Shown in pieces: positions 10,802 through 26,136 of a stretch of 46,331 bases of DNA. Each line of letters opens with the position of its first letter. Position 1 is the stretch's first letter. The DNA comes from Richelia sp. SL_2_1 (GTDB lineage Bacteria > Cyanobacteriota > Cyanobacteriia > Cyanobacteriales > Nostocaceae), in the NCBI GenBank assembly GCA_012033205.1, contig JAAUSO010000037.1:1-46331 (forward strand), read 5' to 3'. The translations under genes and the position numbers were made by a program. The notes under the pieces were generated by a model. That model was not told the DNA's origin and did not search any database. It worked only from the letters and a program-made list of their open reading frames with translations.

Positions 10802-10803
10802 AT

Positions 10804-10985: not shown

Positions 10986-11032
10986 CACACCACGAAAAAC
11001 AACTGTTCATAACATAAATTTCCTTTGTCAAT

Positions 11033-11062: not shown

Positions 11063-11064
11063 AA

Positions 11065-11775
11065 ATGGTTAATATAATTCGCTTAGAAGATATTTTTAAA
11101 ATTTATGGTACTGGAGAAACGGAAGTCAAAGCGCTATGGAATGTCAATTTAATTATAGAAGAAGGCGAATATTGTTCGATCATGGGACCAAGTGGTTCTG
11201 GTAAGTCTACAGCAATGAATATTATTGGTTGTTTAGATCGTCCCACATCAGGAAAGTATTATTTAGATAATGTAGATGTGGCACAAATGGATGATACCCA
11301 ATTGGCACATATTCGCAATAAAAAACTCGGTTTTGTCTTTCAACAATTCCACTTGTTACAACAACTCACAGCCCTAGAAAACGTTATGCTACCGATGCTT
11401 TATGCTAATGTAGCCAATACTGAAAGACGAGATAGGGGAATTGAAGCTTTAAAACGAGTTGGTTTAGAAAATCGTTTAAATAATAAACCCAATCAACTAT
11501 CGGGGGGACAACAGCAACGTGTGGCGATCGCTCGTGCTATAGTTAATCGTCCGGTTGTACTTTTAGCTGACGAACCTACGGGCGCTCTTGACTCGCGCAC
11601 AACTCAAGAAGTATTAGATATTTTTACTGAACTTAATAGTACGGGAATCACAGTGGTAATGGTAACTCATGAACCTGAAGTTGCACGTCAAACAAGGCGG
11701 ATTGTTTGGTTTCGCGATGGTGAAGTTATTCACTCAAATTTAACTGCTGATGATTTGAGTGTTGTTAGTGGTTAG
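11065..11775 (+). CDS. MacB/LolD-type ABC transporter ATP-binding protein
   Basis: The 236-residue nucleotide-binding subunit should power the permease at 9581. All motifs are present: Walker [10 protein letters not shown] (about 43-51), Q-loop [13 protein letters not shown] signature LSGGQQQR, Walker [14 protein letters not shown], and the switch histidine in VMVTHEPEV. The sequence between Walker A and signature ([20 protein letters not shown]) is typical of the LolD/MacB group. With the adaptor and permease upstream it completes a tripartite exporter except for the outer-membrane channel, which is not in the window. All three genes point the same way, but gaps of 218 and 264 bases filled with repeats may weaken co-transcription. 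Confidence 0.95.
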
Positions 11776-11800
11776 TTGTTAAGTTAAAGTTAAAGGCATA

Positions 11801-11884
11801 ATTGGATTTTAGATTTTAGATTTTGCGGAAAGTTTGGGGTGTAGATTCTCGAACCCCAAAACTTTCCAAGACGGATTTTGGATT
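11801..11884. repeat. Dispersed ~80-bp repeat, copy A (hairpin-forming)
   Basis: The core contains GGAAAGTTTGGGG (11827-11839) facing CCCCAAAACTTTCC (11854-11867) around TGTAGATTCTCGAA, so it folds as a stem with one bulge. It may terminate the exporter transcript. An inverted copy sits at 19396-19475. Confidence 0.85.
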
Positions 11885-12042
11885 GTATTCAATACATCAC
11901 ATTAAGTACCTAGACAGAATTAATTTAACATTTTATTTAGGCACTAATAAGTAATTAGTAATGAATTAAAACTTCTTACTTGTTACTTAGACAAGGACAG
12001 CAAATGTAGAAATTATTTTGTCAATTTACTTATAATAATTAT

Positions 12043-13464
12043 TCAAGTTAGTGCTTTCAATAATGCTTGTAATTTAAGTTGGATTTCTGCAAATTCTTTT
12101 TCGGGGTCGGAACCTGGTACAATACCGGCACCCGCATATAGAAGAGATGATTTTGTGTTGCTGTCAATCAATGCCGAACGAATTCCCACGACAAATTCAC
12201 AATTACCTTGAGAATCAATCCAACCCAAGGGTGCAGCATATAAACCCCTCTCGAAGCTTTCATAACGGCGAATTTCCATACAGGCAATATCGGGTGCAAC
12301 TCCGGCTACTGCTGGTGTCGGATGCAGTTTAGCGACTATTTGTAAAGGATGCACATTGGGGGGAACTTTGGCGATAATTGGTGTCCACAAATGCTGAATA
12401 TTTGACAATTGTCGCAATCTAGGCGCTAAAACCTGGGGCAATAAACCTAGACTGAATAACCTTTGAGTAATAAAATCAATTACTAGGGAATGCTCGTGTC
12501 TTTCTTTTTCGCTGTTGAGTAGACGATCGGCATTTTTCGCGTCTTCTTGGGGTGTTTTACCTCTGGCAGCACTTCCAGCTAAAGCATCTGCGATTAACTT
12601 TTGATTGCGAATGGCAATTAATGTTTCTGGAGAAGCACCGATAAAGTTTTGTCCTTTACCGTTACTTGTGGAAAAAATACAGCAGTTGGGATGTAATTGT
12701 CGGAGATTATTTAATGATTTGAATAAGTCGAATGGAGTACTTGATCTAATATTTAAAGCATCCGCTAAAACAATTTTACTATAGTGACCTTTCTGAATAC
12801 TATCTAAAGCTGATAATACTGATTGTTTGAATTTGATTGGTTTAGTAATCGACTTTTTCGTAAATTCGGTTCTGGAATCATCTACATTAATAAAATCGGA
12901 TTTTAATTTGTTGATAGCTATAACTTTCTGCCACAAATATTCTAAAGTTTTTTCTATATTTAAATCCGCATTCACTAAAATATTTGCTACTAATATACAG
13001 CGGTCATTTTTACGAGTAATTTGCCATTTTGGTAAAAAAATTGTAGCCGCAGAAAAAGGATAATCTTGCTGAAAACAGGTTTCAAAAAAACTAAAGCTAC
13101 AAAAAAATAAGGGTTTGCTTAAAGAATGGTTTTCATTGCAAAAAATGACTATTTTACTCAAACAATCTTTGATAAAGTTTTCAGCTTGAGAAAAACGTTC
13201 TTTGCCTGCAAATTGAAATTTTGTTACCGCTTCAAAAACCGCAATCGCCTCTTTTTTGCTGGGGTTTTCCCAGTAAAAATTAAGCTGATTAGATTTGGAT
13301 AGTTTCTGGAAAATAACCAAAGGATCTACCGAGTCAATCTCTAAGGCAATGCTAGCTATTTGCGCGTAACTATTCTTAATGCAAGATGCTCGATTATTTT
13401 TCAGAAATTGGTATAGTTCATTATTATATACAGAAAACTCGGCAGAACATGGTGAAACTGTCAT
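12043..13464 (-). CDS. menF: Isochorismate synthase (MenF)
   Basis: Converts chorismate to isochorismate, the entry step of phylloquinone (vitamin K1) and menaquinone synthesis. The 473-residue protein has a variable N-terminal half and the conserved chorismate-binding domain from about residue 210. Visible motifs are KIVLADAL with the probable general-base Lys, PETLIAI, the block GSAARGKTPQEDAKNA, then EKERHEHSLVIDFI. HPTPAVAGVAP, FERGLYAAPLGWID and YAGAGIVPGSDPEKEF follow. The last carries the Mg-binding Glu of the family. It is divergently placed from menA-menC-menE, which supports menF over the related anthranilate or salicylate synthases. The shared 477-base gap should hold the promoters of both sides. 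Confidence 0.95.
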   Translation of the reverse strand: MTVSPCSAEFSVYNNELYQFLKNNRASCIKNSYAQIASIALEIDSVDPLVIFQKLSKSNQLNFYWENPSKKEAIAVFEAVTKFQFAGKERFSQAENFIKDCLSKIVIFCNENHSLSKPLFFCSFSFFETCFQQDYPFSAATIFLPKWQITRKNDRCILVANILVNADLNIEKTLEYLWQKVIAINKLKSDFINVDDSRTEFTKKSITKPIKFKQSVLSALDSIQKGHYSKIVLADALNIRSSTPFDLFKSLNNLRQLHPNCCIFSTSNGKGQNFIGASPETLIAIRNQKLIADALAGSAARGKTPQEDAKNADRLLNSEKERHEHSLVIDFITQRLFSLGLLPQVLAPRLRQLSNIQHLWTPIIAKVPPNVHPLQIVAKLHPTPAVAGVAPDIACMEIRRYESFERGLYAAPLGWIDSQGNCEFVVGIRSALIDSNTKSSLLYAGAGIVPGSDPEKEFAEIQLKLQALLKALT

Positions 13465-13941
13465 ATTTCTAAAAATAGTAAATTTTTTTGAAGTTCTCTT
13501 CCTAAAGCATCATGAATCGTGGTCGTATTTCTACAGGTAGCATATTCAGATGCAGTTTTACTAGCTAGCTGAGGAGACATATCAACGGTGATGTAAAAAA
13601 CCTCCTTAACTTTGAGCGTTTGTAGATTTTACAGTAGCTCTGGCTCTAAATACAGCCCTGTTAAATCAGTGAACAGTGTTAGCTTTACTCGTGACGCGGT
13701 AGCGTCATACAGTAAACACGGGCGTATGGTGTTCTATTAAAACCCCCCACCAACGCGCTCCCACCTTAATACGGTGGGGAAATTAAACTTTTACTGTATA
13801 AACGTGACTGATAACTGATAACTGATAACTGTTAAACAAGGGATGTAGGAAAGAGAGATAACTGGTAAAACAGAGGCTATCATGAATAGGCTTGCTACTT
13901 TGTATTAGTAGAAAATTTGGCAATTTTATTGATTGCGAGTG
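13465..13941. other. menF-menA divergent intergenic region
   Basis: No gene is seen. It contains a GTGACGCGGTAGCGTCA hairpin (about 13689-13705), a CCCCACC/GGTGGGG inverted repeat (about 13744-13780) and a short TGATAAC tandem repeat near 13808. The ends flank the menF and menA starts, so promoters for both are expected here. None is clear enough to mark. Confidence 0.4.
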
Positions 13942-14847
13942 ATGACTACAAAGCTGATTTTATATCCCAATAAAAAGTTATGGATGGCGGCGATTAAACC
14001 GCCAATGTATAGCGTTGCGATTATGCCCATTTGGGTAGGAACTGCTGTTGCTTTTGCGGAAACAAAAGTGCTTCATGGAGCGGTTTTTTGCACGTTTTTA
14101 GCTGCGGCAATTTTGATTCTTGTCTGGGAAAATTTGAGTAATGATGTTTTTGATTCCGATACAGGAATTGATATTAATAAATCTCATTCTTTAGTGAGTT
14201 TAACAGGCAATAAAAAATTGATATTTTGGCTAGGAAATTGTTTTCTCAGTCTGGGATTATTAGGAATATTAGCAATTAGTTGGTGGCAAAAAGACCTGAC
14301 TGTAATTGGTATTATTTTGGTCTGTTGCTTTTTAGGATATCTTTACCAAGGACCTCCTTTTCGTTTGGGATACAAAGGTTTAGGGGAAATACTTTGTTTT
14401 TTTGCTTTTGGTCCTTTGGCAGTAGAAGCAGCATATTATAGTCAAACTCAAAGTTGGTCTTTAATGAGTTTAGCTGCTTCGTTAATAGTTGGTATTTCCA
14501 CAACTTTAGTATTGTTTTGTTCTCACTTTCATCAAGTTAAAGAAGACTTAGCAGCAGGTAAACTTTCACCTATTGTTCGTTTGGGAACTCAAACAGGTTC
14601 TCAAGTTTTAAATTGCTTAACCAGCAGTATTTATGTGTCGATATTGATATTTGTATTTTGCGGATTTTTTCCCTTATGGACGCTTTTAAGTTTGTTTAGT
14701 TTACCTTTCGCTTTACAGTTATGCAATCATGTCGGACAATATCACAATCAACCCTCCAAAGTTAGTAATTCTAAATTCATCGCGATCGCAGTACAATTTT
14801 GGTGTTGTTTGTTATTAGGATTGGGTTTTGTTTTGTCAAATTGGTAA
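13942..14847 (+). CDS. menA: 1,4-dihydroxy-2-naphthoate prenyl/phytyltransferase (MenA, UbiA family)
   Basis: Membrane enzyme that attaches the phytyl (or polyprenyl) tail to 1,4-dihydroxy-2-naphthoate, making the phylloquinone precursor for photosystem I. The 301 residues form about eight to nine transmembrane helices. The first Asp-rich prenyl-diphosphate motif is NDVFDSDTG (about residues 71-79). The second conserved region is in HFHQVKEDLAAGKLSPIVRLG. The N-terminus (LWMAAIKPPMYSVAIMPIWVG) is typical of MenA. I chose ATG 13942 over a TTG three codons upstream. The last two codons and stop (AAT TGG TAA) are the first unit of the repeat array that follows. menC and menE lie downstream. Confidence 0.95.
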   Translation: MTTKLILYPNKKLWMAAIKPPMYSVAIMPIWVGTAVAFAETKVLHGAVFCTFLAAAILILVWENLSNDVFDSDTGIDINKSHSLVSLTGNKKLIFWLGNCFLSLGLLGILAISWWQKDLTVIGIILVCCFLGYLYQGPPFRLGYKGLGEILCFFAFGPLAVEAAYYSQTQSWSLMSLAASLIVGISTTLVLFCSHFHQVKEDLAAGKLSPIVRLGTQTGSQVLNCLTSSIYVSILIFVFCGFFPLWTLLSLFSLPFALQLCNHVGQYHNQPSKVSNSKFIAIAVQFWCCLLLGLGFVLSNW

Positions 14848-14934
14848 TTGGTAATTGGTAATTGGTAATTGGTAATTGGTAATGGGTAATTGGTAATGGG
14901 TAACTGTCAACTGTCAACTGTCAACTATCAACTA
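14840..14934. repeat. Compound heptanucleotide array between menA and menC
   Basis: About five TAATTGG units change to TAATGGG/TAATTGG, then to about four CAACTGT/CAACTAT units. The menA stop lies in the first unit, and the only upstream ATG in frame with menC (14896) lies in a TAATGGG unit. Confidence 0.9.
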
Positions 14935-15894
14935 TTTTACAAATTTGAATTTCATGTTTATCGTCGAAAATTCGTTACTCCTTTAAATACGGCTCATGGT
15001 ATTTGGGAATATCGCGATGGTATTATTATTTGTTTGAGTGATGAAACGGGAAAAGTTGGTTGGGGAGAAATTTCTCCTATTAGCTGGTTTGGTTCAGAAA
15101 CTTTGGAAGAAGCGGTTTCTTTCTGCAAACAATTACCTAAAAAAATTACTCAAGAAGAAATTTTTTCGATTCCCGAAAAATTACCCGCTTGTCAATTTGG
15201 ATTTGAATCAGCACAAGAAATGATAATACAAAATAATTCTACTTCTGTGTTTTCTCAAAATTTAACCTATAGCGGATTATTAGCTGCTGGAAAAGCTGCT
15301 TTAAATCAATGGCAAGAACTATGGAAAAATGGTACAAATACTTTTAAATGGAAAATCGGTGTTTATTCCATTGCTGAGGAATTATCTATTTTTGAGTTAC
15401 TTATTCGAGAATTACCAGCTTTTACTAAACTGCGATTGGATGCGAATGGAGGTTTGAATTATGACGATGCTCAGATTTGGCTACAAAAATGCGATGATAT
15501 TGATTTAGAAATCGAATTCATTGAACAGCCACTTTCTGTAAATATGTTTTCAGAAATGTTGGAATTGAGTCGTCGTTACAGCACAAAAATAGCTTTAGAT
15601 GAATCTGTCGCGACAATTAAACAACTTGAAAACTGTTATCAAAAAGGTTGGCGAGAAATTTTTGTGATCAAAGCGGGTATAATTGGTTCTCCATCACGTT
15701 TACGCCAATTTTGTTTAAGTCATCAAATTGATACTGTATTTTCATCAGTTTTTGAAACTTCTATTGGAAGAGAAGCCGCATTATCATTAGCTGTAGAATT
15801 ATCGCATCAAAAAAGGGCGGTAGGCTTTGGTGTTAATCATTATTTTGCTGAAGATGAGGAAGTTTCTTTGGAACAGTTATGGAAGAAAAGTTGA
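14896..15894 (+). CDS. menC: o-Succinylbenzoate synthase (MenC, enolase superfamily)
   Basis: Dehydrates SHCHC to o-succinylbenzoate in the phylloquinone/menaquinone pathway. From YKFEFHVYRRKFVTPL on, the protein matches the cyanobacterial MenC type. The catalytic barrel shows KWKIGVYS with the catalytic Lys, the metal ligands in RLDANGG, EFIEQPL and ALDESVA, then FVIKAGIIGSP with the second Lys. TSIGREAALSLAVEL closes the barrel. The start is doubtful. The expected start of the fold has no ATG/GTG next to it, and the nearest in-frame ATG (14896) lies in the repeat array, adding about 15 repeat-coded residues (MGNCQLSTVNYQLF). The 3' end overlaps menE by 16 bases, so the two are translationally coupled. 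Confidence 0.93.
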   Translation: MGNCQLSTVNYQLFYKFEFHVYRRKFVTPLNTAHGIWEYRDGIIICLSDETGKVGWGEISPISWFGSETLEEAVSFCKQLPKKITQEEIFSIPEKLPACQFGFESAQEMIIQNNSTSVFSQNLTYSGLLAAGKAALNQWQELWKNGTNTFKWKIGVYSIAEELSIFELLIRELPAFTKLRLDANGGLNYDDAQIWLQKCDDIDLEIEFIEQPLSVNMFSEMLELSRRYSTKIALDESVATIKQLENCYQKGWREIFVIKAGIIGSPSRLRQFCLSHQIDTVFSSVFETSIGREAALSLAVELSHQKRAVGFGVNHYFAEDEEVSLEQLWKKS

Positions 15895-17540
15895 AATATT
15901 TTGTAAATAATGACTGTTTAATTTGCGAAGATAGTCATTTATTTTCCCAATTAATCAACACATTTTATGTAGATATAATCCAGTTTAAACAAGCATATTC
16001 TTTTTTACCAAAAATTATTTTAAATGAACGTGAACCAGTACGTTTTTTAGCTGGTTTCTTAGCTGCTTGTAGAGCAAATTGTCAGGTATTTCTGTGCAAT
16101 CCTGATTGGGGAAAACAAGAATGGCAGCAAGTATTTGATTTAATTAAACCTGATATTATTTGGGGAGTAGTGGGAGCATCTTGCTCCCTAGAAAATAATT
16201 CTTACTCCCTAGAAAAATCTTACTCCCTAGAAAATAATTCTTACTCTCTAGAAAAATCTTACTCCCTAGAAAATTTTACTAATAAAAAAGCGGGCAAGAT
16301 GCCCGCACTACAAATTGATAATCCTAACACCAATTCGCCATTACCCATTACCCATTCCCCATTACCCATTCCCCATTACCAATTTTCACATATAATGATA
16401 CCCACGGGTGGTTCTGGAGGTAAAATAAAATTTGCCGTACATACCTGGGATACTTTGAAAGCTTCGGTAAAAGGATTTCAAGAGTATTTTCAAGTAGATA
16501 AAATCAATGCTTTTTGTGTATTGCCGCTATATCATGTTAGTGGTTTAATGCAATTTATGCGCTGTTTTATCACTGGTGGGAAGTTAGTTATTTTAGCTTT
16601 TAAAACTCTTGAAAATAGTAAAAAATTCGATATTACTTCCTTGCTGCTAGAAGATTACGGAAATAAAAACCCCAGAGACACTCTTAACACAGAGGAAAGA
16701 GGTAAAGAGAGATTAATAATTGTAGACTGGGATAGGAGTAATAATCTAATTAATAAATTGAATTTTTTTATATCTTTAGTTCCTACTCAGTTAGAACGTT
16801 TACTACAAAAATCGGATTTAACTCAATGGCTGAGTAAATTTAAAACTGTGCTTTTAGGAGGTGCGCCAGCTTGGAATGAGTTATTAGAAAAAGCTCGATT
16901 TCATGATATTAGATTAGCCCCTACCTATGGAATGACGGAAACCGCTTCCCAAATTGCTACTTTAAAACCAGATGATTTTCTCAAAGGTAAAGTTGGCTGC
17001 GGTAAAGTTCTTCCCCACGCAAAAATACAAATTATTGGGGAGAAAGGAGAGTTTTTAAAAACTAATCAAGTTGGTAAAATCAATATTCAAGCCGAGTCTT
17101 TAGCTCTTGGTTACTATCCTTTGAATGGTGAAATACAAAGTTATTTGCAAATAAATGATTTGGGTTTTTTAGACGAAAAAGAGTATTTAAATATTGTCGG
17201 AAGAAATAGCGACAAGATAATTACTGGTGGAGAAAAAGTTTATCCCGCAGAAGTTGAAGCAGCAATTAGAGCTACTGGAATGGTGGCTGATGTGTGTGTA
17301 ATTGGTTTGTTCGATACACATTGGGGACAAGTCGTAACGGCTATTTATGTGCCAAATAATTCCACCATTTTAAATGTTCATATTAAAGCTTTAATCCAGG
17401 AAAAACTTACTAATTATAAAATTCCTAAATTTTGGATTTCTGTTGATTCATTACCTCGTAATTTTCAAGGTAAAATCAATCGTCAAAAGCTTTATGAAAT
17501 TGCTGTTTTTACGGAATTATCAATGCAAACTAAAATATAG
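15879..17540 (+). CDS. menE: o-Succinylbenzoate-CoA ligase (MenE) with repeat-derived internal insert
   Basis: ANL-family enzyme that activates o-succinylbenzoate with ATP and CoA. Its 553 residues exceed the usual MenE by roughly 70 or more. Signature motifs are MIPTGGSGGKIKFAVHTW (P-loop, about residues 172-189), LPLYHVSGLMQFMRC, LGGAPAW, APTYGMTETASQIATLK and GRNSDKIITGGEKVYPAEVE. The catalytic Lys region near the end is RNFQGKINRQ. Between residues about 98 and 170 the protein has an odd stretch with SYSLEN/SYSLEK repeats and SPLPITHSPLPIPHY. In DNA these are intergenic repeat elements (16172-16386), read through in frame. They lie in the loop before the P-loop, and the rest of the fold looks intact, so activity is plausible. 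The gene overlaps menC. Confidence 0.93.
   Translation: MEEKLKYFVNNDCLICEDSHLFSQLINTFYVDIIQFKQAYSFLPKIILNEREPVRFLAGFLAACRANCQVFLCNPDWGKQEWQQVFDLIKPDIIWGVVGASCSLENNSYSLEKSYSLENNSYSLEKSYSLENFTNKKAGKMPALQIDNPNTNSPLPITHSPLPIPHYQFSHIMIPTGGSGGKIKFAVHTWDTLKASVKGFQEYFQVDKINAFCVLPLYHVSGLMQFMRCFITGGKLVILAFKTLENSKKFDITSLLLEDYGNKNPRDTLNTEERGKERLIIVDWDRSNNLINKLNFFISLVPTQLERLLQKSDLTQWLSKFKTVLLGGAPAWNELLEKARFHDIRLAPTYGMTETASQIATLKPDDFLKGKVGCGKVLPHAKIQIIGEKGEFLKTNQVGKINIQAESLALGYYPLNGEIQSYLQINDLGFLDEKEYLNIVGRNSDKIITGGEKVYPAEVEAAIRATGMVADVCVIGLFDTHWGQVVTAIYVPNNSTILNVHIKALIQEKLTNYKIPKFWISVDSLPRNFQGKINRQKLYEIAVFTELSMQTKI
16172..16386. repeat. Cluster of three repeat types inside menE
   Basis: The stretch holds a GGGAGCATCTTGCTCCC hairpin (about 16172-16187), then five units of ACTCCCTAGAAAA(TAATTCTT) in two alternating lengths. 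A GCGGGCAAGATGCCCGC hairpin (about 16290-16306) and an ATTACCC/ATTCCCC heptamer array (16338-16382) follow. The whole stretch is open in the menE frame. Confidence 0.88.
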
Positions 17541-17593
17541 GGAGACAAAGACGTAGCAGTGCTACGTCTCTACATTATTAATGTGTGTTGCTA

Positions 17594-17994
17594 TTAACGT
17601 AATTTTTCTAAACATTTGACGATTTCTGCTGATAATCCTTCTTTTGTCTGTTTGTTGCATCAATACAAACATGACGAGTGATTGCTTTCGCAACTAGTTT
17701 ATCATTTATATAAATTTGATAATCAATTTCAAACTGTTCAACACGAATTTTTGAAGGAGTTAAGCTAACAACTAATTTATCACCGCAATACATCGGACTC
17801 ATGAAATCAACATTAGCATGAACGATAGGAAAAGCAGTAGATGGATTTGTAAAAAATTGCTTAATATCAATTCCTAATGATTCTAAAGCTGCTTCGTAAG
17901 CTTCGTGACATATACTCAAAACATTCGCAAAGTAGACAACCCCAGCAGCATCGGTATCTTGAAAGCGAATTGTGCGATTATAAATAAAAGACAT
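17594..17994 (-). CDS. menI: 1,4-dihydroxy-2-naphthoyl-CoA thioesterase (hotdog 4HBT family), 3' end frameshifted
   Basis: Releases DHNA from DHNA-CoA before prenylation by MenA. The hotdog fold starts [24 protein letters not shown]. It has the catalytic Asp in [12 protein letters not shown], then [31 protein letters not shown] and AITRHVCID. As read, the frame ends at 17608 with a poor tail ([12 protein letters not shown]). One extra A in the AAAA run at 17642-17645 would restore a family-like end, [16 protein letters not shown], stopping at 17594. The coordinates given include that restored end. The lesion lies beyond the catalytic core, so even the frameshifted protein could fold. Its position beside menA, menC and menE supports the DHNA-CoA role over other thioesterases. 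It is convergent with menE. Confidence 0.85.
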
Positions 17995-18000
17995 TGAAAA

Positions 18001-18050
18001 AGGTTAAAGGTTAAAGGTTAAAGGTTAAAAGTTAGGAGTTAGGAGTTAGT
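18001..18050. repeat. Heptanucleotide array (AAAGGTT then AGGAGTT)
   Basis: Four to five AAAGGTT units pass into three AGGAGTT units, six bases upstream of the menI ATG. The array therefore occupies the 5' leader of menI. Confidence 0.9.
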
Positions 18051-18090
18051 ACCACCGGAGTTTGGAATTATAAATATAACATTATTCTCT

Positions 18091-18155
18091 ATTACCCATT
18101 ATCCATTACCAATTACCCATTACCCATTACCCATTACCGATTACCGATTACCAAT
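18091..18155. repeat. Heptanucleotide array (TTACCCA / TTACCGA)
   Basis: About nine units. Read on the minus strand it is TAATGGG/TAATCGG, and its first unit gives the last codons and stop (AAT TGG TAA) of the HopA1-family gene. Confidence 0.9.
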
Positions 18156-19236
18156 TATAAATATCATCAGAATTTGGATTAAGATAAGGACGTTCTAAAT
18201 CAACTAATTTACAAGCAAAATTCTGATGAATGATGTCTACTTTTTCTGATGGTGAATCAATACCTTTTTCCCATGCTGTAAATAAAGCGTTAGCGAGAAT
18301 TTGACAACGATTTACACCGAAACTCTGCTTGTTAAGGGGTTTTTCTAGTGGTTGCTCGGCTAAACTTAATCCTGGTGCTAAAAATTTAGTAAATAAAGGT
18401 ATTTCTGATTGAAAATAAGATTGATGTTCTGTGTAAATGTTTTTAATTAACTTTTGTATAATCGAATAGTCTTGACGCTGAAAATTAAGTATCCCCGAAT
18501 CATAACGATTGCAACCTAAAGGATGATGGGGAACTTGAAAACTAAAGGGTATTTCCTTAATGTTTAATTGCTGTGTTATGCTGTCCATTAAAGCAATGGC
18601 ACCTTGGGGATTTAAGTTGAAAAATATACTAGTAGTTTCATAATTGCTCAAGTTATTTGATAAATCATTTTGGTATTTTTGACTTGAGTTACTAACTGCT
18701 AAATAGAAGCCGTTATTTAAACGGTTTTTTGGTAATCGGATAGCAATTAAATCATCAATTCTATTGATAGAAGTGTTTGATTCTAAATGGTTTTCTTCGA
18801 CGTGTAACGTCAAACCACCTTTAGTTACAGCCAAACTGCCATCGGGTTCAATTCGTAATATCTGCCAATCACCATCGTAATAACCTTTACCCCGATTATG
18901 TTCGTGTAACAAATTATAAAATTGCCAATCGATTTCAAATACACAATTGTTTTCTAAATCTTGATGTAATAACAAATTGGGATTACTAATATTTGCTGCT
19001 AATACACTTTGTAAGGAGTTATTGTAATAAATGCCGTAGAGAAAGTTTCGCAGTAATAAAGTCAGGTATTTGTTTTGTAATACTTTGGAACTTGTTTCTA
19101 GTGTTTCTACCATTAAAGCAGGCAAAACAAAAGGTTGATAATCGGGATGAATAATGCAAAAATTAGGTTCTATTTTTATTTTACTAACAATATCAAAGAA
19201 GGTATTTAATAAAGAATTTTTGTTATAAGTTATCAT
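18148..19236 (-). CDS. HopA1-family protein (candidate phospho-Ser/Thr lyase of a RiPP pathway)
   Basis: The 362-residue protein resembles the HopA1 family, first named from a Pseudomonas type III effector. Motif-level signs are KYLTLLLRNFLYGIYYNNSL (about residues 57-75) and HEHNRGKGYYDGDW (111-124) followed by VTKGGLTLHVEENH. The C-terminal block PLFTKFLAPGLSLAEQP is also characteristic. In actinobacterial class V lanthipeptide and thioamitide pathways, a HopA1 protein works as the elimination enzyme with an APH-like kinase to dehydrate Ser/Thr in a precursor peptide. Here the kinase gene lies 246 bases upstream on the same strand. No signal peptide or secretion motif is seen, so an effector role is unlikely. 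The family call is by eye and the function is inferred. The C-terminal NW-stop comes from a repeat unit. Confidence 0.7.
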   Translation of the reverse strand: MITYNKNSLLNTFFDIVSKIKIEPNFCIIHPDYQPFVLPALMVETLETSSKVLQNKYLTLLLRNFLYGIYYNNSLQSVLAANISNPNLLLHQDLENNCVFEIDWQFYNLLHEHNRGKGYYDGDWQILRIEPDGSLAVTKGGLTLHVEENHLESNTSINRIDDLIAIRLPKNRLNNGFYLAVSNSSQKYQNDLSNNLSNYETTSIFFNLNPQGAIALMDSITQQLNIKEIPFSFQVPHHPLGCNRYDSGILNFQRQDYSIIQKLIKNIYTEHQSYFQSEIPLFTKFLAPGLSLAEQPLEKPLNKQSFGVNRCQILANALFTAWEKGIDSPSEKVDIIHQNFACKLVDLERPYLNPNSDDIYNW

Positions 19237-19395
19237 GATGATTTTATTTTGATTATGTATGAATAGTAAACGATGAAAAATAAATGCAACCCTTCAGAGA
19301 AACAAAAGTTAACAGCAACCATTTTTGATAGATTACTGTTAACTATAAAATTTCAACTAACCAACCTCGGATTAAATTCTAAATTTTAGAATGAT

Positions 19396-19475
19396 AATCC
19401 AAAATCCGTCTTGGAAAATTTTGCGGGAAGAGAATCTACACCCCAAACTTTCCGCCAAATCTAAAATCCAAAATT
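19396..19475. repeat. Dispersed ~80-bp repeat, copy B (inverted relative to 11801)
   Basis: It reads AATCCAAAATCCGTCTTGG, then GAGAATCTACACCCCAAACT and TTCCGC, the reverse complement of the 11801-11884 copy with a few changes. One stem arm is mutated here (ATTTTGCGGG instead of GTTTTGGGG). It fills the kinase-HopA1 gap. Confidence 0.85.
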
Positions 19476-19482
19476 GATTTGA

Positions 19483-20724
19483 TTAACATCCACGCAAGCG
19501 GGTTTTTTCGTAATAAAGGGGAATTAAATTGTTTTCCCTTTCAGCCGCATTAATTTTGGCAGATTGTAGAAAAGGTTTAAGAATTTGAAATTCGGATTTA
19601 CCAAAAATATCCATTACATATTCGGGGGTTCTGATTAAGATATTTTTGGCGAATTCCAAAGTCACTAAACTAGTATGATGTAAGTTTTGCTGGCTCTTAA
19701 TCTGGCTCTGAATTTGATTTATCAGCGCTAAACCGGCAAACTTGACAATCGACTGGATGAAATCTTTACGGTACTCTAAAATCATTGGGAAAGCTTTCAG
19801 ATAAGCTTCAGTTAAAGCCAACATCGAAGGTTGAAGAATCTCCAGCGGAATAGCCGCTAATTCCCAAGATTCCTCTAACTCCAAAGTCGAATCTACAACT
19901 AAACTCGATAACCAAATTTTCAAGTAACCCGCTAGCAGAATTCCTAAATCGTAGGCAGCATCTCCCCAAGCACAGGCTTCCCAATCAATCAACTTAACTT
20001 CTGGATTATCCAACTGCTGCCAACGAGAATGTACTAAAATGTTTTCTAGTTTTAAATCGTTGTGAGTTAAACAACAAGGATTAAATGAAGACGCTAAATC
20101 GGCGATCGCGGATTCTAAAATGTCATCATGCTGATAACTAGAGTAAAACGCCAGCCCCGTACTGCTGACTTTACCAAAAATCTCAGGTTCAAGGAAATCT
20201 ATGCCCTGTGCCGGATTAAAATACTGATAGCGAATCTGCCCAGCTGGAGCAGTAGCCATAAAATCACGGTACTTTTGACGTTTAAAAGTCGCACGATGCA
20301 GTGCTGCTAAGGTATCGCCAATCGAACTTGCTAACTCTGGAGGAAAGTATAAGTTCTGTCTGTAATAGCTTTCCAGCCCTCGGTATTCCCAAAGGTAGTT
20401 ACGCACGAGAATTGAATTTTCCTCGTCGTAATGTACTAATTGTGGAGATAACGCACTTGTATTGCCGAGAACTGGAAAAGATTCAAGCAATTGGTGAAAC
20501 AGCCATTCATTAAAGAATTCATGGGGGATACCATTGACATCTTGGGCTAGTTCTTGTTTAACCAAAAGCTTGCGATTTGAACCCAAAGTAACCAGTATAT
20601 TTAAATTCTTACGGCTACTACTGTGTGGCAAATCTGCATCGGCGGTTGCGCCATCTTCTGAGCTACTCAGATCCGCTTCTTGCAGATACTGGATAACGTT
20701 TTGAGAAGATAGTGAAAATTTCAT
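19483..20724 (-). CDS. Aminoglycoside-phosphotransferase-like kinase, partner of the HopA1 protein
   Basis: The 413-residue protein has a protein-kinase-like (APH) fold. Visible are the ATP-binding Lys (K56 in KLLVKQEL), the catalytic loop CLTHNDLKLENIL (H221, D223, N228) and the metal-binding Asp in KLIDWEACAWGDAAYDL (D247). All catalytic residues are intact, so it should be an active phosphotransferase. The start at 20724 is supported by AAGGAAG upstream. A Ser/Asp-rich loop (residues 19-38) interrupts the N-lobe. Antibiotic resistance is possible by family. However, pairing with a HopA1 gene is the hallmark of class V lanthipeptide and thioviridamide-type dehydratases, where the kinase phosphorylates Ser/Thr of a peptide. 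No precursor was found next to it. Confidence 0.75.
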   Translation of the reverse strand: MKFSLSSQNVIQYLQEADLSSSEDGATADADLPHSSSRKNLNILVTLGSNRKLLVKQELAQDVNGIPHEFFNEWLFHQLLESFPVLGNTSALSPQLVHYDEENSILVRNYLWEYRGLESYYRQNLYFPPELASSIGDTLAALHRATFKRQKYRDFMATAPAGQIRYQYFNPAQGIDFLEPEIFGKVSSTGLAFYSSYQHDDILESAIADLASSFNPCCLTHNDLKLENILVHSRWQQLDNPEVKLIDWEACAWGDAAYDLGILLAGYLKIWLSSLVVDSTLELEESWELAAIPLEILQPSMLALTEAYLKAFPMILEYRKDFIQSIVKFAGLALINQIQSQIKSQQNLHHTSLVTLEFAKNILIRTPEYVMDIFGKSEFQILKPFLQSAKINAAERENNLIPLYYEKTRLRGC

Positions 20725-21497
20725 TTATGTCTTACTTCCTTAGATTCCTTTAAAATCAGCTTTTTTTGGTTTTGGCTGGAATAATGACAGCATTCCCCAA
20801 CGAAGCCCGTTTTTTAGAGAATCTCAAAAAAATTAGGATGAGTACTCTCTATTCATATCGGATTTTACTGAGAAAAACTTGCCAAAATGCCAATTAGTTC
20901 TTTACTATTGCTTCAAACTTCACTTTCATTACACGGTGAAATCTTTAATATTAATTCAAATTATTACTTCCGCGAATATAGATATTTGTGCTTTAACCTT
21001 TTAATGGCTGTTCTTTTCCCAAGATTCCTTTTTTGAACAGTCAGCAGATTCACAAACATGAATATAATTATCTCTTACAACAGCTAACACTCACACAGTA
21101 CAACAGCTTTTATCTAAATTCCGGAAGAATACAATTATTTTTCTTTACTCGTAGTCTAATAATTACTTTGTCAAACTATCAACAATCCTAATCAACCCAA
21201 AATCTACGTAAAACCCTTAGCTTTCTGAGAGAACATTTAACGAAATATTTAAATTTTTTTCTGTTACGCAACATTTCTACACAATATTTCCGTAGTGAAT
21301 TCCTTGAGGCTTTAAACTGTTATCTTTTATATTTATAGAAATAATTCTTAATATTAAAGGTCAAAGGTCAAAGGTTAGAGGTCAAAGGTCAAAGGTCAAA
21401 GGTCAAAGGTTAGAGGTCAAAGGTTAGAGGTCAAAGGTCAAAGGTTAGAGGTCAAAGGTTAGAGGTTAGAAGTCAACTGTCCACTGTCAACTAACTC
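20725..21497. other. Divergent gap between kinase and AAA ATPase genes
   Basis: I searched both strands for a small precursor-like gene. Only weak frames appear: 37 codons at 20784-20897 (+), 31 codons at 20964-21059 (-) and 17 codons ending near 20741 (-). None has the Ser/Thr/Cys-rich core expected of a lanthipeptide. The right end (21355-21480) is a heptamer array. Confidence 0.5.
21355..21480. repeat. Heptanucleotide array (AAAGGTC / AGAGGTC / AAAGGTT), about 18 units
   Basis: This is the longest array in the window, with mixed units. It ends in GTCAACTGTCCACTGTCAACT just before the DUF815 ATPase ATG at 21498. Confidence 0.92.
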
Positions 21498-22814
21498 ATG
21501 AATAATCAAACAATTATTGCCCAGGTTCAATTTCTCCAGCGTCAAGCAGCTTCTCTGTTACTTTACCAATCTGTATTTGAAGGGGAAGTAGGTAAAGCAT
21601 TTCTTGATTTATTGCAAACAATACGTTATCCCAATGCTGAAGGGCGGGATTGTCTTCAAGCTTACGGCTATTTCTTCAAAACTTTGGCACTTCAAAATCA
21701 AAATTGGGAAGAATATTTGATTTGTCAAATTTTAGTAAATGATAATCCTTTTAGCACTCAAGCCCAATTAGCATTAGAAAGTTTACCTCCGGCTTTAATT
21801 GCAGCAGCGAAACACGATTTACAGGCTTTGCAAAGCTTCCATGAATGCAGTGTTGCTTGTCTAAGTGAATGGGTGCAGTCTATAGCCCGTCTACCCATAT
21901 TGCCGATTGTATGGTACACAGAACAGCAGAAAACAGAAGCAAACGAACAACTACCAATAATAGAGAAATTGAGAATTTTACCTGATTGGCGTGATGCTGT
22001 GGAAGACTTAACAGCATTTTATCGAAATTACGGTATGGGTATTTTTGCTGAGTATAAAGCTTTTCGCTGGCAACAGGGTGAGTTTATTGGTATCCGCCAT
22101 CCCGATCCAGTAAAATTAAATGAATTAGTTGGTTATGAATCTCAAAAACAAACTTTAGTCAAAAACACAGAATTTTTATTATCAGGACAACTGGCGCTGC
22201 ACGTTTTACTTTACGGTAGTCGCGGTAGTGGAAAATCTTCCTTAGTAAAAGCTTTATTAAATGAATACGCTCACCTGAATTTACGCTTGATAGAAGTTGC
22301 CAAATCTGAATTAAAAGACTTACCACAAATTGTCGAGCTTTTATGGAATAAACCACAAAAATTTATCATCTTTGTTGATGACTTATCCTTTGAAGATTCC
22401 GACGACACTTTCAAAGCATTCAAAGTCGTCTTAGAAGGAAGTTTAACAGCGCGATCCCAAAATGTGGTGGTTTACGCAACTTCAAATCGCCGTCACTTAA
22501 TTCGGGAGTTTTTCGCAGACAGACCCCGCCCCAAAGATTCCGATGAAGTCAATGCTTGGGATAGCGTACAGGAAAAGCTTTCATTTAGCGATCGCTTTGG
22601 CTTGACATTAACTTTTGAACCTGCTTCCCAAAATGCTTATTTACAAATTGTTCAACATCTGGTAAAACTATCTAACATCGAAATTAGTACAGAAGAACTA
22701 AAGCATCAAGCTTTGCAATGGGCAACTCGTCATAATGGACGTTCCGGAAGAACTGCAAGACAATTTGTAGATTTTTTAAAAGCGGAAAAAACAATTGCTC
22801 AACATGAAAACTAA
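21498..22814 (+). CDS. DUF815-type AAA ATPase
   Basis: The 438-residue protein has an N-terminal helical region (about 1-200) and a C-terminal AAA module. Walker A is LYGSRGSGKSSLVKALL (about 235-251), Walker B is KFIIFVDDLSFED, sensor-1 is VVVYATSNRRHLI, and an arginine-rich segment (HNGRSGRTARQFVDFL) lies near the end. The features GYESQKQTLVKNTEFL before Walker A and VLEGSLTARSQNVVVYATSN after Walker B match the DUF815 group, whose cellular role is not established. It is followed in the same direction by a TerB-C-like membrane protein and a BrxD-like ATPase, with gaps of 194 and 217 bases. The start lies just after a repeat array. Confidence 0.85.
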   Translation: MNNQTIIAQVQFLQRQAASLLLYQSVFEGEVGKAFLDLLQTIRYPNAEGRDCLQAYGYFFKTLALQNQNWEEYLICQILVNDNPFSTQAQLALESLPPALIAAAKHDLQALQSFHECSVACLSEWVQSIARLPILPIVWYTEQQKTEANEQLPIIEKLRILPDWRDAVEDLTAFYRNYGMGIFAEYKAFRWQQGEFIGIRHPDPVKLNELVGYESQKQTLVKNTEFLLSGQLALHVLLYGSRGSGKSSLVKALLNEYAHLNLRLIEVAKSELKDLPQIVELLWNKPQKFIIFVDDLSFEDSDDTFKAFKVVLEGSLTARSQNVVVYATSNRRHLIREFFADRPRPKDSDEVNAWDSVQEKLSFSDRFGLTLTFEPASQNAYLQIVQHLVKLSNIEISTEELKHQALQWATRHNGRSGRTARQFVDFLKAEKTIAQHEN

Positions 22815-23008
22815 AAATAACAGGTAGCTTAGCTTCCCGAACCAACTAATCCCGATTTTTTTAATAATCTTTTTAAGTAGATATATTGACTTATTAGTTA
22901 ATTTTTTATACTCATATTTAAGTTGTATTAGCAAAACAATTACATCAGGGTTCTTAAAATCCGGATGTGAACTGTGATACACCGGCAACATATTTTGATA
23001 AATGAATT

Positions 23009-24319
23009 ATGCTAAAAACAAGCAATATGCACGACTCTATGGTCAGCAATCGATTTATTATAGGTATAGTTGCCTTTGGGGTGAGTTTTGGGTTAACTTT
23101 AGTGTTCACCTGGAATTTTTATAGTGCGATTTTTACGGGCATCATAACTATACTTGCTACATATACGGCGACATTTATCGTAGATAAACGACGTAGAAAT
23201 TATGAATTATTAGTTTTAGATTCTTTTGTAAAACGAATCAAAGAACTGGAAAATATCCAACATGGTATGACAGTAGAAGTTTCTCAGCTAGAAAGCCATC
23301 GTCGGAATTTAGTTACTGAGTCAAATCAATTACAAAACCAAATTGGCGATCGCCGTAATCAAAGAGATTCGGTAAATCGGGAATTAAGCACTTTTGCGCT
23401 TCAGAAAAAACAATTAGAATCGGAAGTCATCTATCTACAGAATGAAATCAAAAATATCGAAAAATTGAAAGAAGAAGCAAATAACTCTTTTGCGAATATT
23501 TCAGCAGAAAAACGGCGTTTGGATTTAAATTGCAATGTATCGAAAGCTGAAATCACCCAATTGCACGGTACAATTGGCGAACTTCTTCAAGAAAAGGAAG
23601 AATTAGAAAATAATTTAACTTTACTGTCGAGACTCAAACCGCAGTTAGAAGAAAAATTATATGAGTTGCGAGTGCAGCTTCAAGAATTAGAAAGTGAAGA
23701 GAAAAAGCAAAAAGAAGTATTATTTAGTAATAACGAGCAACAACAAAGATTAGAGAATCAATTAAAGTTATTAAAAAGCCAAAAAGCAGAAGCAAAAAAA
23801 ATTTTAGAACAATTACAAGGACAAACTTCATTACTTCAAGAAGAAAGGGACTTATTACAAAATCAAGTTTGGGAATTACTGCAACAATTAGAAAACTTGA
23901 ATCAGCAGCCATCCATTATTCAAGTAGGGGACTCAGAAACAGAAGAGTTTCCTTTTGCTGATTTAGTCGAAACGATTTCCATTGAGCCAGAAGAGACAGT
24001 AAAGAATATATCATCACAATTAGCCGAAGAATGGACGGATTTACTAAACAACTTACCAGTACATGAAATTCAGGTATTAAAAGCAGTATTAGAACAAAAT
24101 AATCCTAATCCTGTGATTAAAAAGATAGCCGAAGAAAATATTACCATGCCAAACTTATTAATTGATGCTATCAACGAACGTGCGAAAGATGCCATTGGTG
24201 AACTAATAATTGCAACTGCTGATGATATCCCTCAAATTTATCAAGAATATCAGCAGAATATTCAAGAATTGATTGCAATATCCGAACAAATAAAAAATAA
24301 ACACGCTTCATCTAATTAA
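23009..24319 (+). CDS. Membrane-anchored coiled-coil protein with probable TerB-C C-terminal domain
   Basis: The 436 residues divide into three parts. Two adjacent transmembrane helices come first (about 14-36 and 38-57, VAFGVSFGLTLVFTW and FTGIITILATYTATF), ending in KRRR. A long heptad-rich coiled coil follows (about 70-305), dominated by Leu, Glu, Gln and Lys. The C-terminal domain (about 335-425) contains EEWTDLLNNLPVHEIQVLKA, KKIAEENITMPNLLIDAIN and KDAIGELIIATADDIPQIY. This domain resembles TerB-C, found in Ter-related stress systems together with BrxC/D-type ATPases and helicases. A BrxD-like ATPase follows directly here, which supports that reading. It would sit on the inner side of the membrane and display TerB-C in the cytoplasm. 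The function is not known. Confidence 0.65.
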   Translation: MLKTSNMHDSMVSNRFIIGIVAFGVSFGLTLVFTWNFYSAIFTGIITILATYTATFIVDKRRRNYELLVLDSFVKRIKELENIQHGMTVEVSQLESHRRNLVTESNQLQNQIGDRRNQRDSVNRELSTFALQKKQLESEVIYLQNEIKNIEKLKEEANNSFANISAEKRRLDLNCNVSKAEITQLHGTIGELLQEKEELENNLTLLSRLKPQLEEKLYELRVQLQELESEEKKQKEVLFSNNEQQQRLENQLKLLKSQKAEAKKILEQLQGQTSLLQEERDLLQNQVWELLQQLENLNQQPSIIQVGDSETEEFPFADLVETISIEPEETVKNISSQLAEEWTDLLNNLPVHEIQVLKAVLEQNNPNPVIKKIAEENITMPNLLIDAINERAKDAIGELIIATADDIPQIYQEYQQNIQELIAISEQIKNKHASSN

Positions 24320-24536
24320 GATTGCTGAAATTATTTTAATTATTATAAATCATTTTTTAATTCATCCGGTTTTAGATTAATCTTGAAACAGATAAATCAT
24401 GTAGAGAGCGAGTGTATTGCGACATTTCCAATATTTTGAATTTACTACTAGCGATATGCTATATAGTAGCTAGCAGCATAAAATTATGGGAATAATTCAA
24501 AATTCCCAAAACCCAAAATCAAAAATCCAAAATCGA

Positions 24537-25865
24537 ATGACAAAGCCAAAAATATCTAAAAAAGTATCTACAGCTTTGATAAACTCTTTAGGTGCAGGGG
24601 TAGTACCCAGAGTTGGATTAGAACATATCGCAGTAGGTAGAGAAAAAGAATTAAATAGCCTGTTACAAAACATCGAAGATGTTGCAGAAGGAGTTGCAGC
24701 ATTTCGATTTGTAATTGGTAATTATGGTTCCGGTAAAAGTTTTATACTGCAACTTATTCGTAATCGAGCCATGGAATTGGGTTTTGTTGTTACTGATGCC
24801 GATTTATCTGATAAAAGACGATTAGCAGGAACTAATAATGAAGGTTTGGCTACTTATCGAGAATTAATGAGTCGTCTAGCAACAAAAACTCGTCCCGATG
24901 GTGGTGCTTTGGTTTCTATTTTGGAAGGATGGATTAATAAAATCCAGCAGGAAGTAGTTAAAGAAACTGAGATGCGTCCAAATGATCAAGGTTTTGACGA
25001 TACAGTAGAAACCAAAATTAGAGAAGTAATTCAATATATCGAAGATTTAGTCCACGGATTTGATTTTGGTAGCGTAATTGTTGCTTATTGGAGAGGATAT
25101 CGTTTGGATGACGATGATTTGAAAAATGCAGCATTGCGGTGGTTGAGAGGAGAATTTAATACTAAAACTGAAGCCAGAACGGCTTTAGGAGTACGAGTAA
25201 TTATTGATGATGAAAGTTGGTATGACTACCTAAAATTATGGGCGAAATTTGTTGCTGAAATTGGCTATAAAGGACTTTTAGTGTTATTAGATGAAGCGGT
25301 GCATTTATATCAAATTTCACCTACAGTCAGTCGCGAGAAAAACTACAACAGACTGTTAGGAATTTTCAACGATACAATGCAGTGTAAAGCCGAACATTTA
25401 GGGGTATTTATTGGCGGAACTGTGAAGTTTTTAGAAGACCCAAATCGTGGTTTATTTTCTGATTCAGCTTGGCGAAGACGTACTAAAGAAAGTCGTTTTG
25501 TCGCCAAAGCAGGAGTACAAGAATTTAACGGTCCTGTAATGAAATTGAATCCTTTAAGTGAATCAGAAGTTTTAAAATTATTAGAGAATTTAGCTGATAT
25601 TCACGCTCTTAACTACAATTATAAAAAAGCTTTGACTAACAAAGATTTAAACGAATTTGTCCAAGAGATTATTAACCGTTTAGGGGCTGAAGCTTTACTT
25701 ACTCCCGGCGAAATTGTCCGCGACTTTATCAGTATATTGAATATTTTGCATCAAAATCCCCAGATTACTTTAGGCAAGATAATTCATGATTCAGAATTTC
25801 AACCGAGTAAATTAGGCGCAAATACAGAAGTTGATGAAGATAATGTTGCTGAATTTACTTTGTAA
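24537..25865 (+). CDS. BrxD-like (DUF2791) P-loop ATPase
   Basis: The 442-residue protein starts MTKPKISKKVSTALINSL. I chose ATG 24537; an upstream ATG at 24486 would add 17 residues coded by an AT-rich repeat. Walker A is VIGNYGSGKSFILQ (about 59-72) and Walker B is GLLVLLDEAVHLYQ (about 248-261). The pattern GVVPRVGLEHIAVGREKEL before Walker A and the sensor region GVFIGGTVKFLEDPNRGLF are characteristic of the BREX BrxC/BrxD and DUF2791 ATPases. In BREX and TerB-associated loci such ATPases act with helicases or nucleic-acid enzymes. No BREX methylase, phosphatase or helicase is present here, so it is not a BREX locus. It is co-directional with the TerB-C-like gene upstream. Confidence 0.8.
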   Translation: MTKPKISKKVSTALINSLGAGVVPRVGLEHIAVGREKELNSLLQNIEDVAEGVAAFRFVIGNYGSGKSFILQLIRNRAMELGFVVTDADLSDKRRLAGTNNEGLATYRELMSRLATKTRPDGGALVSILEGWINKIQQEVVKETEMRPNDQGFDDTVETKIREVIQYIEDLVHGFDFGSVIVAYWRGYRLDDDDLKNAALRWLRGEFNTKTEARTALGVRVIIDDESWYDYLKLWAKFVAEIGYKGLLVLLDEAVHLYQISPTVSREKNYNRLLGIFNDTMQCKAEHLGVFIGGTVKFLEDPNRGLFSDSAWRRRTKESRFVAKAGVQEFNGPVMKLNPLSESEVLKLLENLADIHALNYNYKKALTNKDLNEFVQEIINRLGAEALLTPGEIVRDFISILNILHQNPQITLGKIIHDSEFQPSKLGANTEVDEDNVAEFTL

Positions 25866-26136
25866 ATAGTGCATAAGGCATTAAAAAGTATTTTATCCCA
25901 CAAAAATATCAAATAAATTGGTTTGCTATAAACTTTATTTATTTTTATAGCGAAATAGCATTTTATTGTATAACTTAATAGATTGAAATCAAATAATTCA
26001 AATATTTTTTATTAAATAAGAGAGTGAAATTAAACCAATGCGCCTGTAAGCTTTAATTTGGGAAAAGGTTAAATACTTCAGACTCATACCTATTCCCAAA
26101 GCCCCATTCCCATATATTTTATAACTCGTAATCTCT

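What the first reader, a model, noticed from the sequence alone, without database searches (positions are those of the whole stretch)
18148..20724. HopA1/APH-kinase pair: candidate peptide-dehydrating (class V lanthipeptide-like) module without a visible precursor
Seen: a kinase with intact APH motifs (K56, HNDLKLEN, IDWE) and a HopA1-family gene lie together on one strand. Known: in class V lanthipeptides (lexapeptide, pristinin), kintamdin and thioamitides, this same pair dehydrates Ser/Thr of a ribosomal peptide. Inference: this cyanobacterium may use it on an unlinked peptide or protein. There is no cyclase, protease, exporter or LanD-like gene beside it, so it may be a stripped-down or orphan modification system, possibly new for cyanobacteria.
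Basis: partly seen in the sequence, partly recalled or inferred. Interest (0 to 1): 0.72.

Follow-up and report, generated by a model that had tools for sequence, protein, structure and literature searches.

The report
Retired peptide-modifying enzyme pair, still conserved
A kinase and a lyase that in other bacteria dehydrate small peptides together have, in one large family of cyanobacteria, apparently lost the lyase's key catalytic residue yet been kept in nearly every genome looked at, so the pair probably does a new, still unknown job.

Summary
Both genes are real: a kinase like LxmK (19483-20724, minus) followed by a HopA1-family protein (18148-19236, minus). The pairing is not new for cyanobacteria; published RiPP clusters use it. 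But this copy belongs to a separate clade that I met only in the window's own family, where a kinase match of clade strength occurs in 212 of 217 genomes. In that clade the HopA1 protein has lost its catalytic lysine (Gln/Glu/His in 84 of 84; Lys in 65 of 69 others). Replacing that lysine in the class V lyase CaoY leaves phosphorylated, undehydrated peptide. The window copy also lacks the catalytic arginine. Most of these kinases keep their catalytic residues; all 84 full-length ones end in an added tail, LRGC (83) or LKGC (1), and 67 of 81 have the palindrome TGCCA-N3-TGGCA upstream (the window has a one-base variant). One genome keeps the kinase without a clade lyase. No precursor peptide was found beside the pair. 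Best reading: a RiPP dehydratase domesticated into a kinase with a pseudolyase partner, which phosphorylates an unidentified target and does not dehydrate. Structure models failed; target and function are unproven.

The parts
19483..20724 (-). APH/LxmK-like kinase, 413 aa (clade A)
   Evidence: PF01636 E 3e-15; NF038156 E 5.6e-23; a match with best E under 1e-110 in 212 of 217 same-family genomes (my reading of its table)
20041..20064 (-). catalytic loop HNDLKLEN (H221-N228)
   Evidence: H221, D223, N228 in 81 of 81 clade A kinases; of 3 further full-length ones G535 has D223G; coordinates
19486..19527 (-). C-terminal tail LIPLYYEKTRLRGC, seen only in clade A
   Evidence: LRGC-stop in 81 of 81 and 2 of 3 more (G535 ends LKGC); in none of the 67 clade B kinases
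18148..19236 (-). HopA1-family protein, 362 aa, predicted pseudolyase
   Evidence: PF17914 E 1.3e-49; catalytic positions H30, S203, Q234, R244, N251
18535..18537 (-). codon of Q234, in the place of the catalytic lysine
   Evidence: aligned to LxmY Lys221
18628..18630 (-). codon of S203, in the place of the catalytic arginine (CaoY Arg187)
   Evidence: Arg in 63 of 80 clade A, 64 of 69 clade B
20850..20892 (-). promoter-like element: TGGCATTTTGGCA (20880-20892, one-base variant of the palindrome) plus GATATGAATA, upstream of the kinase
   Evidence: in 21 genomes, one hit in each of 12 of 13 family genomes, all upstream of the kinase, 0 in the 8 others, 0 in the reversed-pattern control; TGCCAN3TGGCA in 67 of 81 clade A upstream regions (window not among them) against 0 of 67 clade B
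17608..17994 (-). 4HBT thioesterase, neighbour conserved in synteny (DHNA-CoA hydrolase by inference from the men genes); not claimed as a part
   Evidence: PF13279 E 3.2e-18, no NCBIfam model over its cut-off; directly after HopA1 in 27 of 44 clade A loci

Best explanation
The pair is a domesticated descendant of a class V-type (LanK/LanY) RiPP dehydratase. On the branch leading to the clade the HopA1 lyase lost its catalytic lysine while the kinase gained a conserved C-terminal tail ending LRGC and a promoter element of its own. Proposed working: the kinase phosphorylates Ser/Thr of a protein or peptide; the pseudolyase still binds the kinase and can hold the phosphorylated residue (phosphate-contact residues H30 and R244 are kept) but cannot eliminate phosphate, so the product is a phosphorylated and not a dehydrated target. 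Shown here by sequence: families, clade, loss of the lysine, tail, upstream element, wide conservation, purifying selection. Inferred: complex formation, kinase activity, target class, role of the tail, that the element is a promoter.
For: Lysine absent in 80 of 80 clade A HopA1 (Q74, E5, H1) and in 4 more, present in 65 of 69 others. The position aligns to LxmY Lys221 (9dk1_B) in the profiles of both clades, and R189/K221/R231/Y238 (numbers counted by me on the printout) have the spacing of CaoY R187/K219/R229/Y236. Published mutants: CaoY-K219A phosphorylates only, R187A nearly dead. The other catalytic positions are looser in clade A (R203 63 of 80, Y251 46 of 80) than in clade B (64 and 64 of 69), while H30 (80 of 80), R244 (79 of 80) and D246 (80 of 80) stay. 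Clade A is one group, SH-aLRT 99; next to it (SH-aLRT 93) stands L095, which has the lysine, no tail and a GG-leader-like ORF next door. dN/dS is 0.06-0.27 for both genes in 12 pairs of my choice. G149 keeps the kinase with intact motifs and tail, 4HBT follows it 89 bp on, and both HopA1 hits of that genome carry the lysine.
Against: No biochemistry. Glu or His at 234 (6 of 80) could in principle act as a base. On the tree the looser positions amount to few changes (R203: 6 in 44 clade A rows, 4 in 69 clade B; Y251: 7 and 4). Four of 69 clade B rows also lack the Lys. Kinase positions drift too: K225 is Lys in 49 of 81, E249 Glu in 72, D247 lost in 3, D223 lost in G535, so some copies may be dead kinases and phosphorylation may not be the function. 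AlphaFold models failed (mean pLDDT 37.8 and 45.7), so active-site geometry is unchecked.
Confidence: 0.6

Rival explanations
1. It is an active class V-like dehydratase acting on an unlinked peptide, such as the double-glycine peptides on contig C143 of the same genome.
For: Pair organisation and families match. C143 carries short GG-leader peptides beside a peptidase-type ABC transporter and HlyD-like gene (gene names from my reading), with weak matches to a Family 1A-type peptide profile (E 8.8e-4, 0.05 and 0.98). Their cores do hold Ser/Thr, and one Cys among three peptides.
Against: Catalytic Lys and Arg are missing in the window copy; the genome has no other HopA1; in G149 the kinase persists without a clade A lyase.
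Confidence: 0.1
2. The kinase is a small-molecule phosphotransferase linked to the phylloquinone genes next door, and HopA1 is a stabilising subunit.
For: Synteny with the 4HBT thioesterase (in the stretch in 32 of 44 loci) and menE/menC/menA/menF (28-29 of 44); weak matches to choline, thiamine and methylthioribose kinase models.
Against: The pair stays together where no men gene is in the fetched stretch (L076, L080, L088, L106, L112); the model matched by 16 of 16 sampled clade A kinases, and by far best, is LxmK; menE, menC, menA are on the opposite strand.
Confidence: 0.15
3. Both proteins are pseudoenzymes kept for a structural or regulatory binding role.
For: Lyase lysine lost throughout; kinase D247 or D223 lost in 4 genomes (L106, L112, L129, G535); the tail is more constant than the catalytic-loop Lys.
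Against: K56, H221, D223 and N228 are invariant in 81 of 81, D247 in 78 of 81.
Confidence: 0.15

Closest known systems
LxmK/LxmY and CaoK/CaoY, class V lanthipeptide dehydratases (PDB 9dk1 for LxmKY)
   Same: APH-fold kinase plus HopA1-fold partner encoded together; equivalents of CaoY His57 and Arg229 kept
   Different: catalytic Lys (and here Arg) missing, extra kinase tail LRGC, no precursor, LanD or exporter found beside it, near family-wide distribution
Cyanobacterial Family 1A / type-B HopA1-phosphotransferase RiPP clusters (PMC8153245, PMC9486802; most of clade B here)
   Same: nearest homologues, often in the same genomes, same gene order
   Different: they keep the Lys (65 of 69), a GG-leader peptide family sits in 48 of 68 loci, and none has the tail (0 of 67) or the upstream palindrome (0 of 67)
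Pseudomonas syringae HopA1 (4rsx, 4rsw)
   Same: Pfam PF17914 fold family; printed alignment
   Different: injected effector; keeps the Lys in the printed alignment; kinase partner not examined here

Membership tests
Class V lanthipeptide dehydratase (LanKY) | HopA1 (PF17914) protein | tested here: met
   E 1.3e-49
Class V lanthipeptide dehydratase (LanKY) | partner APH-fold kinase with catalytic motifs | tested here: met
   but under the LxmK equivalog cut-off (81.6 of 315 bits), as are two clade B/sister kinases scanned (76.7 and 76.5)
Class V lanthipeptide dehydratase (LanKY) | lyase catalytic Lys (CaoY Lys219 / LxmY Lys221) | tested here: not met
   Q234
Class V lanthipeptide dehydratase (LanKY) | lyase catalytic Arg (CaoY Arg187) | tested here: not met
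   S203 in the window; Arg in 63 of 80 clade A
Class V lanthipeptide dehydratase (LanKY) | phosphate-contact residues (CaoY His57, Arg229) | tested here: met
   R244 aligns to LxmY Arg231; H30 equated with His57 by conservation and order only
Class V lanthipeptide dehydratase (LanKY) | precursor peptide gene beside the pair | tested here: not met
   a crude scan of 12000-27000 for ORFs of 25-120 aa with an acidic-then-GG/GA motif gave 4 hits, none convincing (two are pieces of the BrxC/D and isochorismate synthase ORFs); of the small ORFs next to the pair only a 31-aa one is shared by all 8 near relatives, not beyond
Class V lanthipeptide dehydratase (LanKY) | LanD, cyclase or peptidase exporter in the cluster | tested here: not met
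   Pfam scan of all 34 window ORFs of 100 aa or more; the rest of the genome was not scanned for these
Class V lanthipeptide dehydratase (LanKY) | dehydration of Ser/Thr | not testable with these tools
   needs biochemistry
Family 1A cyanobacterial HopA1 RiPP cluster | HopA1/phosphotransferase pair with multicopy GG-leader peptides | tested here: not met
   peptide family found in 48 of 68 clade B loci; not among the families listed for clade A (the listing stops at families in 3 or more loci), none in the window

The most novel reading that the evidence does not exclude
The substrate is built in: the kinase's own C-terminal tail, ...K-T-x4-C-stop (T-R-L-R-G-C), took the place of the lost precursor peptide. 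It would be phosphorylated in cis on its Thr, or would occupy the pseudolyase pocket as a pseudosubstrate, turning a peptide-tailoring enzyme into a self-regulated signalling switch of these cyanobacteria. The T-x4-C spacing equals that of AviMeCys-forming core C-termini (recalled, not from a call).
Probability: 0.12. Interest if true: 0.85.

Novelty: new variant of a known kind. Interest (0 to 1): 0.62.

Why it matters
HopA1 plus APH is used as a genome-mining handle for class V RiPPs; in this cyanobacterial family the most widespread copy is probably a false positive, recognisable by Q/E/H at the catalytic lysine and a kinase ending LRGC. If right, it shows a natural-product dehydratase turned into a near-universal gene pair of a family, and gives a simple knockout target in laboratory Anabaena for a kinase of unknown role.

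Tried and rejected
Upstream ORF family 18 (20 of 44 loci) as a precursor: rejected, the member scanned is Tmemb_14. A 31-aa ORF upstream of the kinase: conserved only in the window's near relatives. Link to nitrogen fixation: in G051, G532 and G533, where the clade A kinase was not found, nifH is over the cut-off, so absence does not follow nifH. NtcA sites: 26 of 81 against a shuffled mean of 14.2, maximum 24: weak. Rfam: 0 hits in the window at gathering scores. AlphaFold2 with 5-row alignments: too poor to use, so no fold search was run. Tail pattern in 21 genomes: 14 hits, 12 at the kinases and 2 taken as chance (G402 reads TSFSGC; in G539 no listed ORF ends there); the reversed control gave 4. 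Papers: 'HopA1' with 'cyanobacteria' (8 papers), with 'class V lanthipeptide' (8), with 'Nostoc' (0) and 'T3SS effector HopA1' (1) showed me nothing on a lyase-dead clade; most were seen as listings only and subscription papers and preprints are not held, so this is no proof that it is unpublished.
Full report
OBSERVATION. Both genes are at the stated places. 18148-19236(-) is HopA1 (PF17914 E 1.3e-49) and 19483-20724(-) an APH-fold kinase (PF01636 E 3e-15) whose best specific model is the class V lanthipeptide kinase LxmK, at 81.6 bits against a cut-off of 315. The kinase precedes HopA1 on one strand, 246 bp apart. Downstream lie a 4HBT thioesterase (same strand) and menE, menC, menA (opposite strand); upstream, on the opposite strand, DUF815, TerB-C and BrxC/D-type genes. 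By Pfam none of the 34 ORFs of 100 aa or more is a LanD, LanC or peptidase exporter. The window's genome (G000) gives one HopA1 hit.

HOW COMMON. In an even draw of 386 genomes of the phylum, 56 have PF17914: 43 of the window's own family f1 and 13 others (my count; no f1 genome appears in the part of the no-match list that is shown, which starts with 'same order'). The call lists 111 hits. I fetched stretches for 109 of them in 108 regions; the other two are the window itself and a 66-aa fragment in G070 (E 5.3e-5), left out. Adding the window and three of the four named loci (L032 has the contig length of L036 and was not counted twice) makes 112 loci with 113 HopA1.

TWO GROUPS. By kinase score to the window kinase (over 400 bits or not) the loci split into 44 'clade A' and 68 others, called 'clade B' here although it also holds a few far relatives. 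The split was made on kinase scores; the HopA1 tree then gave clade A as one side of one branch, SH-aLRT 99 (quick method, no bootstrap, warnings about long branches among clade B rows). Clade B loci look like the published cyanobacterial RiPP clusters: a peptide family of about 79 aa, often in several copies, in 48 of 68, a protein of about 1000 aa in 32 and one of about 515 aa in 30. Clade A loci share another neighbourhood: kinase and HopA1 adjacent in 44 of 44, 4HBT directly next in 27 and somewhere in the stretch in 32, DUF815 in 35, men genes in 28-29. Some stretches end at contig edges, so these are lower bounds. The HopA1 that branches next to clade A (SH-aLRT 93), L095 from another family of the order, has the catalytic lysine and no tail, and a 107-aa ORF with a GG-leader-like start (...EETFLNDLDQQDTMIQGG...) beside its kinase; that ORF matches no Pfam or NCBIfam model.

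PRESENCE IN THE FAMILY. The window kinase was sought in 217 genomes of f1: 214 match at E 1e-60 or better. Reading the table, 212 have a best E under 1e-110 (clade A strength), G532 and G051 only clade B strength, and G448 (54% complete), G533 and G536 none. All 56 genera have at least one genome under 1e-110. G532 does have a HopA1 of clade A score (387 bits) with Gln at 234, on a 5.9-kb contig, so its missing kinase may be an assembly gap. That f1 is GTDB Nostocaceae, the heterocyst-formers, is my inference. In the 343 sampled genomes outside f1 no clade A member was seen.

THE LYASE IS PREDICTED DEAD. One switch stands out between the clades: window position 234 is Lys in 65 of 69 clade B HopA1 and never in 44 clade A (Q38, E5, H1). 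I then checked 37 further f1 genomes that I picked from the list for genus spread (40 fetched, 3 dropped as duplicates of L033-L035); 36 gave a HopA1 and all 36 have Gln; L206 had none near its contig end, and that genome's HopA1 was found on another contig (L263), with Gln. Together 80 of 80 lack Lys; four more (G393, G532, G535, G547) also have Gln. The position is that of the catalytic base: the profile of 26 clade B proteins aligns to LxmY (9dk1_B, E 8.9e-20; PMC12141560, passages, names 9DK1 as LxmKY) with Lys221 in that column, and the clade A profile (27 proteins, E 7.5e-7) aligns the same way with Gln. LxmY R189/K221/R231/Y238, as I count them on the printout, have the spacing of CaoY R187/K219/R229/Y236. 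In CaoY, K219A abolished elimination and left phosphorylated peptide, R187A nearly did, R229Q was inefficient and His57 to Asn gave partial dehydration (PMC9486802, passages). Clade A keeps the residues that I equate with H57 (80 of 80; by order and conservation, this part is outside the LxmY alignment) and R229 (79 of 80), while R187 (63 of 80) and Y236 (46 of 80) drift; the window has Ser and Asn at those two. Against: 4 of 69 clade B sequences also lack the Lys (L054 second copy, L139, L140, L143), so lysine loss is not confined to clade A; counted as changes on the tree, the drift is modest (R203 6 in A and 4 in B, Y251 7 and 4); Glu or His at the site in 6 of 80 clade A might serve as a base.

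THE KINASE. K56, H221, D223 and N228 are invariant in 81 of 81 clade A kinases; D247 is kept in 78, E249 in 72, the catalytic-loop Lys225 in only 49 (in clade B 64 of 67). G535, a 3.2-Mb genome, has D223G, and its HopA1 has lost R244 and D246, so that copy looks decayed. Clade A kinases end with a variable linker and then a fixed tail: LRGC-stop in 81 of 81, TRLRGC in 77; of three more full-length kinases two end TRLRGC and one AKLKGC. None of the 67 clade B kinases has it. In G149 the clade A kinase is intact, the thioesterase follows 89 bp on, and the two HopA1 hits of that genome lie elsewhere and carry the lysine (L062, L085/L265).

SELECTION AND UPSTREAM ELEMENT. In 12 pairs of my choice dN/dS (own script, Nei-Gojobori) is 0.06-0.27 for kinase and HopA1, in the range of DUF815 and below most values for 4HBT and menC. 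Upstream of the kinase (median 162 nt, range 124-289) lies a palindrome: TGCCAN3TGGCA in 67 of 81 clade A upstream regions (mean 0.0 in letter shuffles), exact TGCCATTTTGGCA in 54, and 0 of 67 clade B; in most it is followed by GATATTA-like letters. The window has the variant TGGCATTTTGGCA (20880-20892) and is not among the 67. Palindrome (either form) plus second box occurs once in each of 12 of 13 f1 genomes, every time upstream of the kinase, and in 0 of 8 others, control 0. The palindrome alone (TTGCCATTTTGGCA) is not specific: 34 hits in 21 genomes, control 2. That the element is a promoter or operator is inference.

MECHANISM. Shown: a HopA1/LxmK-type pair, one clade, lysine lost, tail gained, under purifying selection, nearly family-wide. 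Inferred: the proteins still bind each other (CaoK/CaoY and LxmK/LxmY do); the kinase phosphorylates a protein or peptide; the pseudolyase holds or gates the phosphorylated residue. The tail could be a docking element, a regulator or a built-in substrate; its Thr is replaced in 2 of 81 (Asn, Pro), which speaks against a strict need for Thr. AlphaFold models were unusable.

NOVELTY. The pair in cyanobacteria is published (PMC8153245, PMC9486802; passages). I saw no report of a lysine-less clade, of the LRGC tail or of the family-wide distribution in the searches, which cover open-licence papers only and were mostly read as listings. I rate it a new variant of a known kind.

Noticed in passing
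G000 contig C305: 16313-16462, 18176-18379, 34188-34328, 41955-42323 (+): nifH of the window's genome appears in at least four ordered pieces over about 26 kb (model positions 1-50, 41-107, 86-133, 127-249), as if cut by several interruption elements of the kind excised in heterocysts.
   Followed up: no
L223, L225, L230, L238, L243, L246, L247, L248, L251: The palindrome TTGCCATTTTGGCA also recurs beyond the 3' end of HetP-family genes (9 of the 30 palindrome loci examined; about 65 to 610 nt away where I could place the 3' end; HetP by NF037966 E 2.6e-35 for L246 only), and 7 of 30 lie near a 238-aa protein without a Pfam or NCBIfam match: a possible shared regulator or small RNA.
   Followed up: partly
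L168 (G000:C143), 5706-15544: Nif11-like and GG-leader peptides, a radical SAM-like gene, an HlyD-like gene and a peptidase-type ABC transporter: a separate RiPP-like cluster, no HopA1 in the genome but the window's (gene names from my reading).
   Followed up: partly
window 3222-5779 (-): A DNA gyrase/topoisomerase IV subunit A gene is split over two ORFs that overlap by 25 bp in different frames: frameshift or assembly error.
   Followed up: no
window 28964-30144 (-): A MacB/FtsX-type permease seems fragmented: a 118-aa FtsX C-terminus plus a 188-aa ORF without a Pfam match.
   Followed up: no
L138 and L140 (G296, G011): HopA1 ORFs of 829 and 819 aa; in L140 kinase and HopA1 match one ORF, apparently a natural fusion, with Gly at the catalytic lysine position.
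   Followed up: no
window 20964-21059 (-): 31-aa basic ORF upstream of the kinase, 78-100% identical in 8 loci of the window's near relatives (the L034 copy reads Ile at the start position), not found convincingly beyond them.
   Followed up: partly
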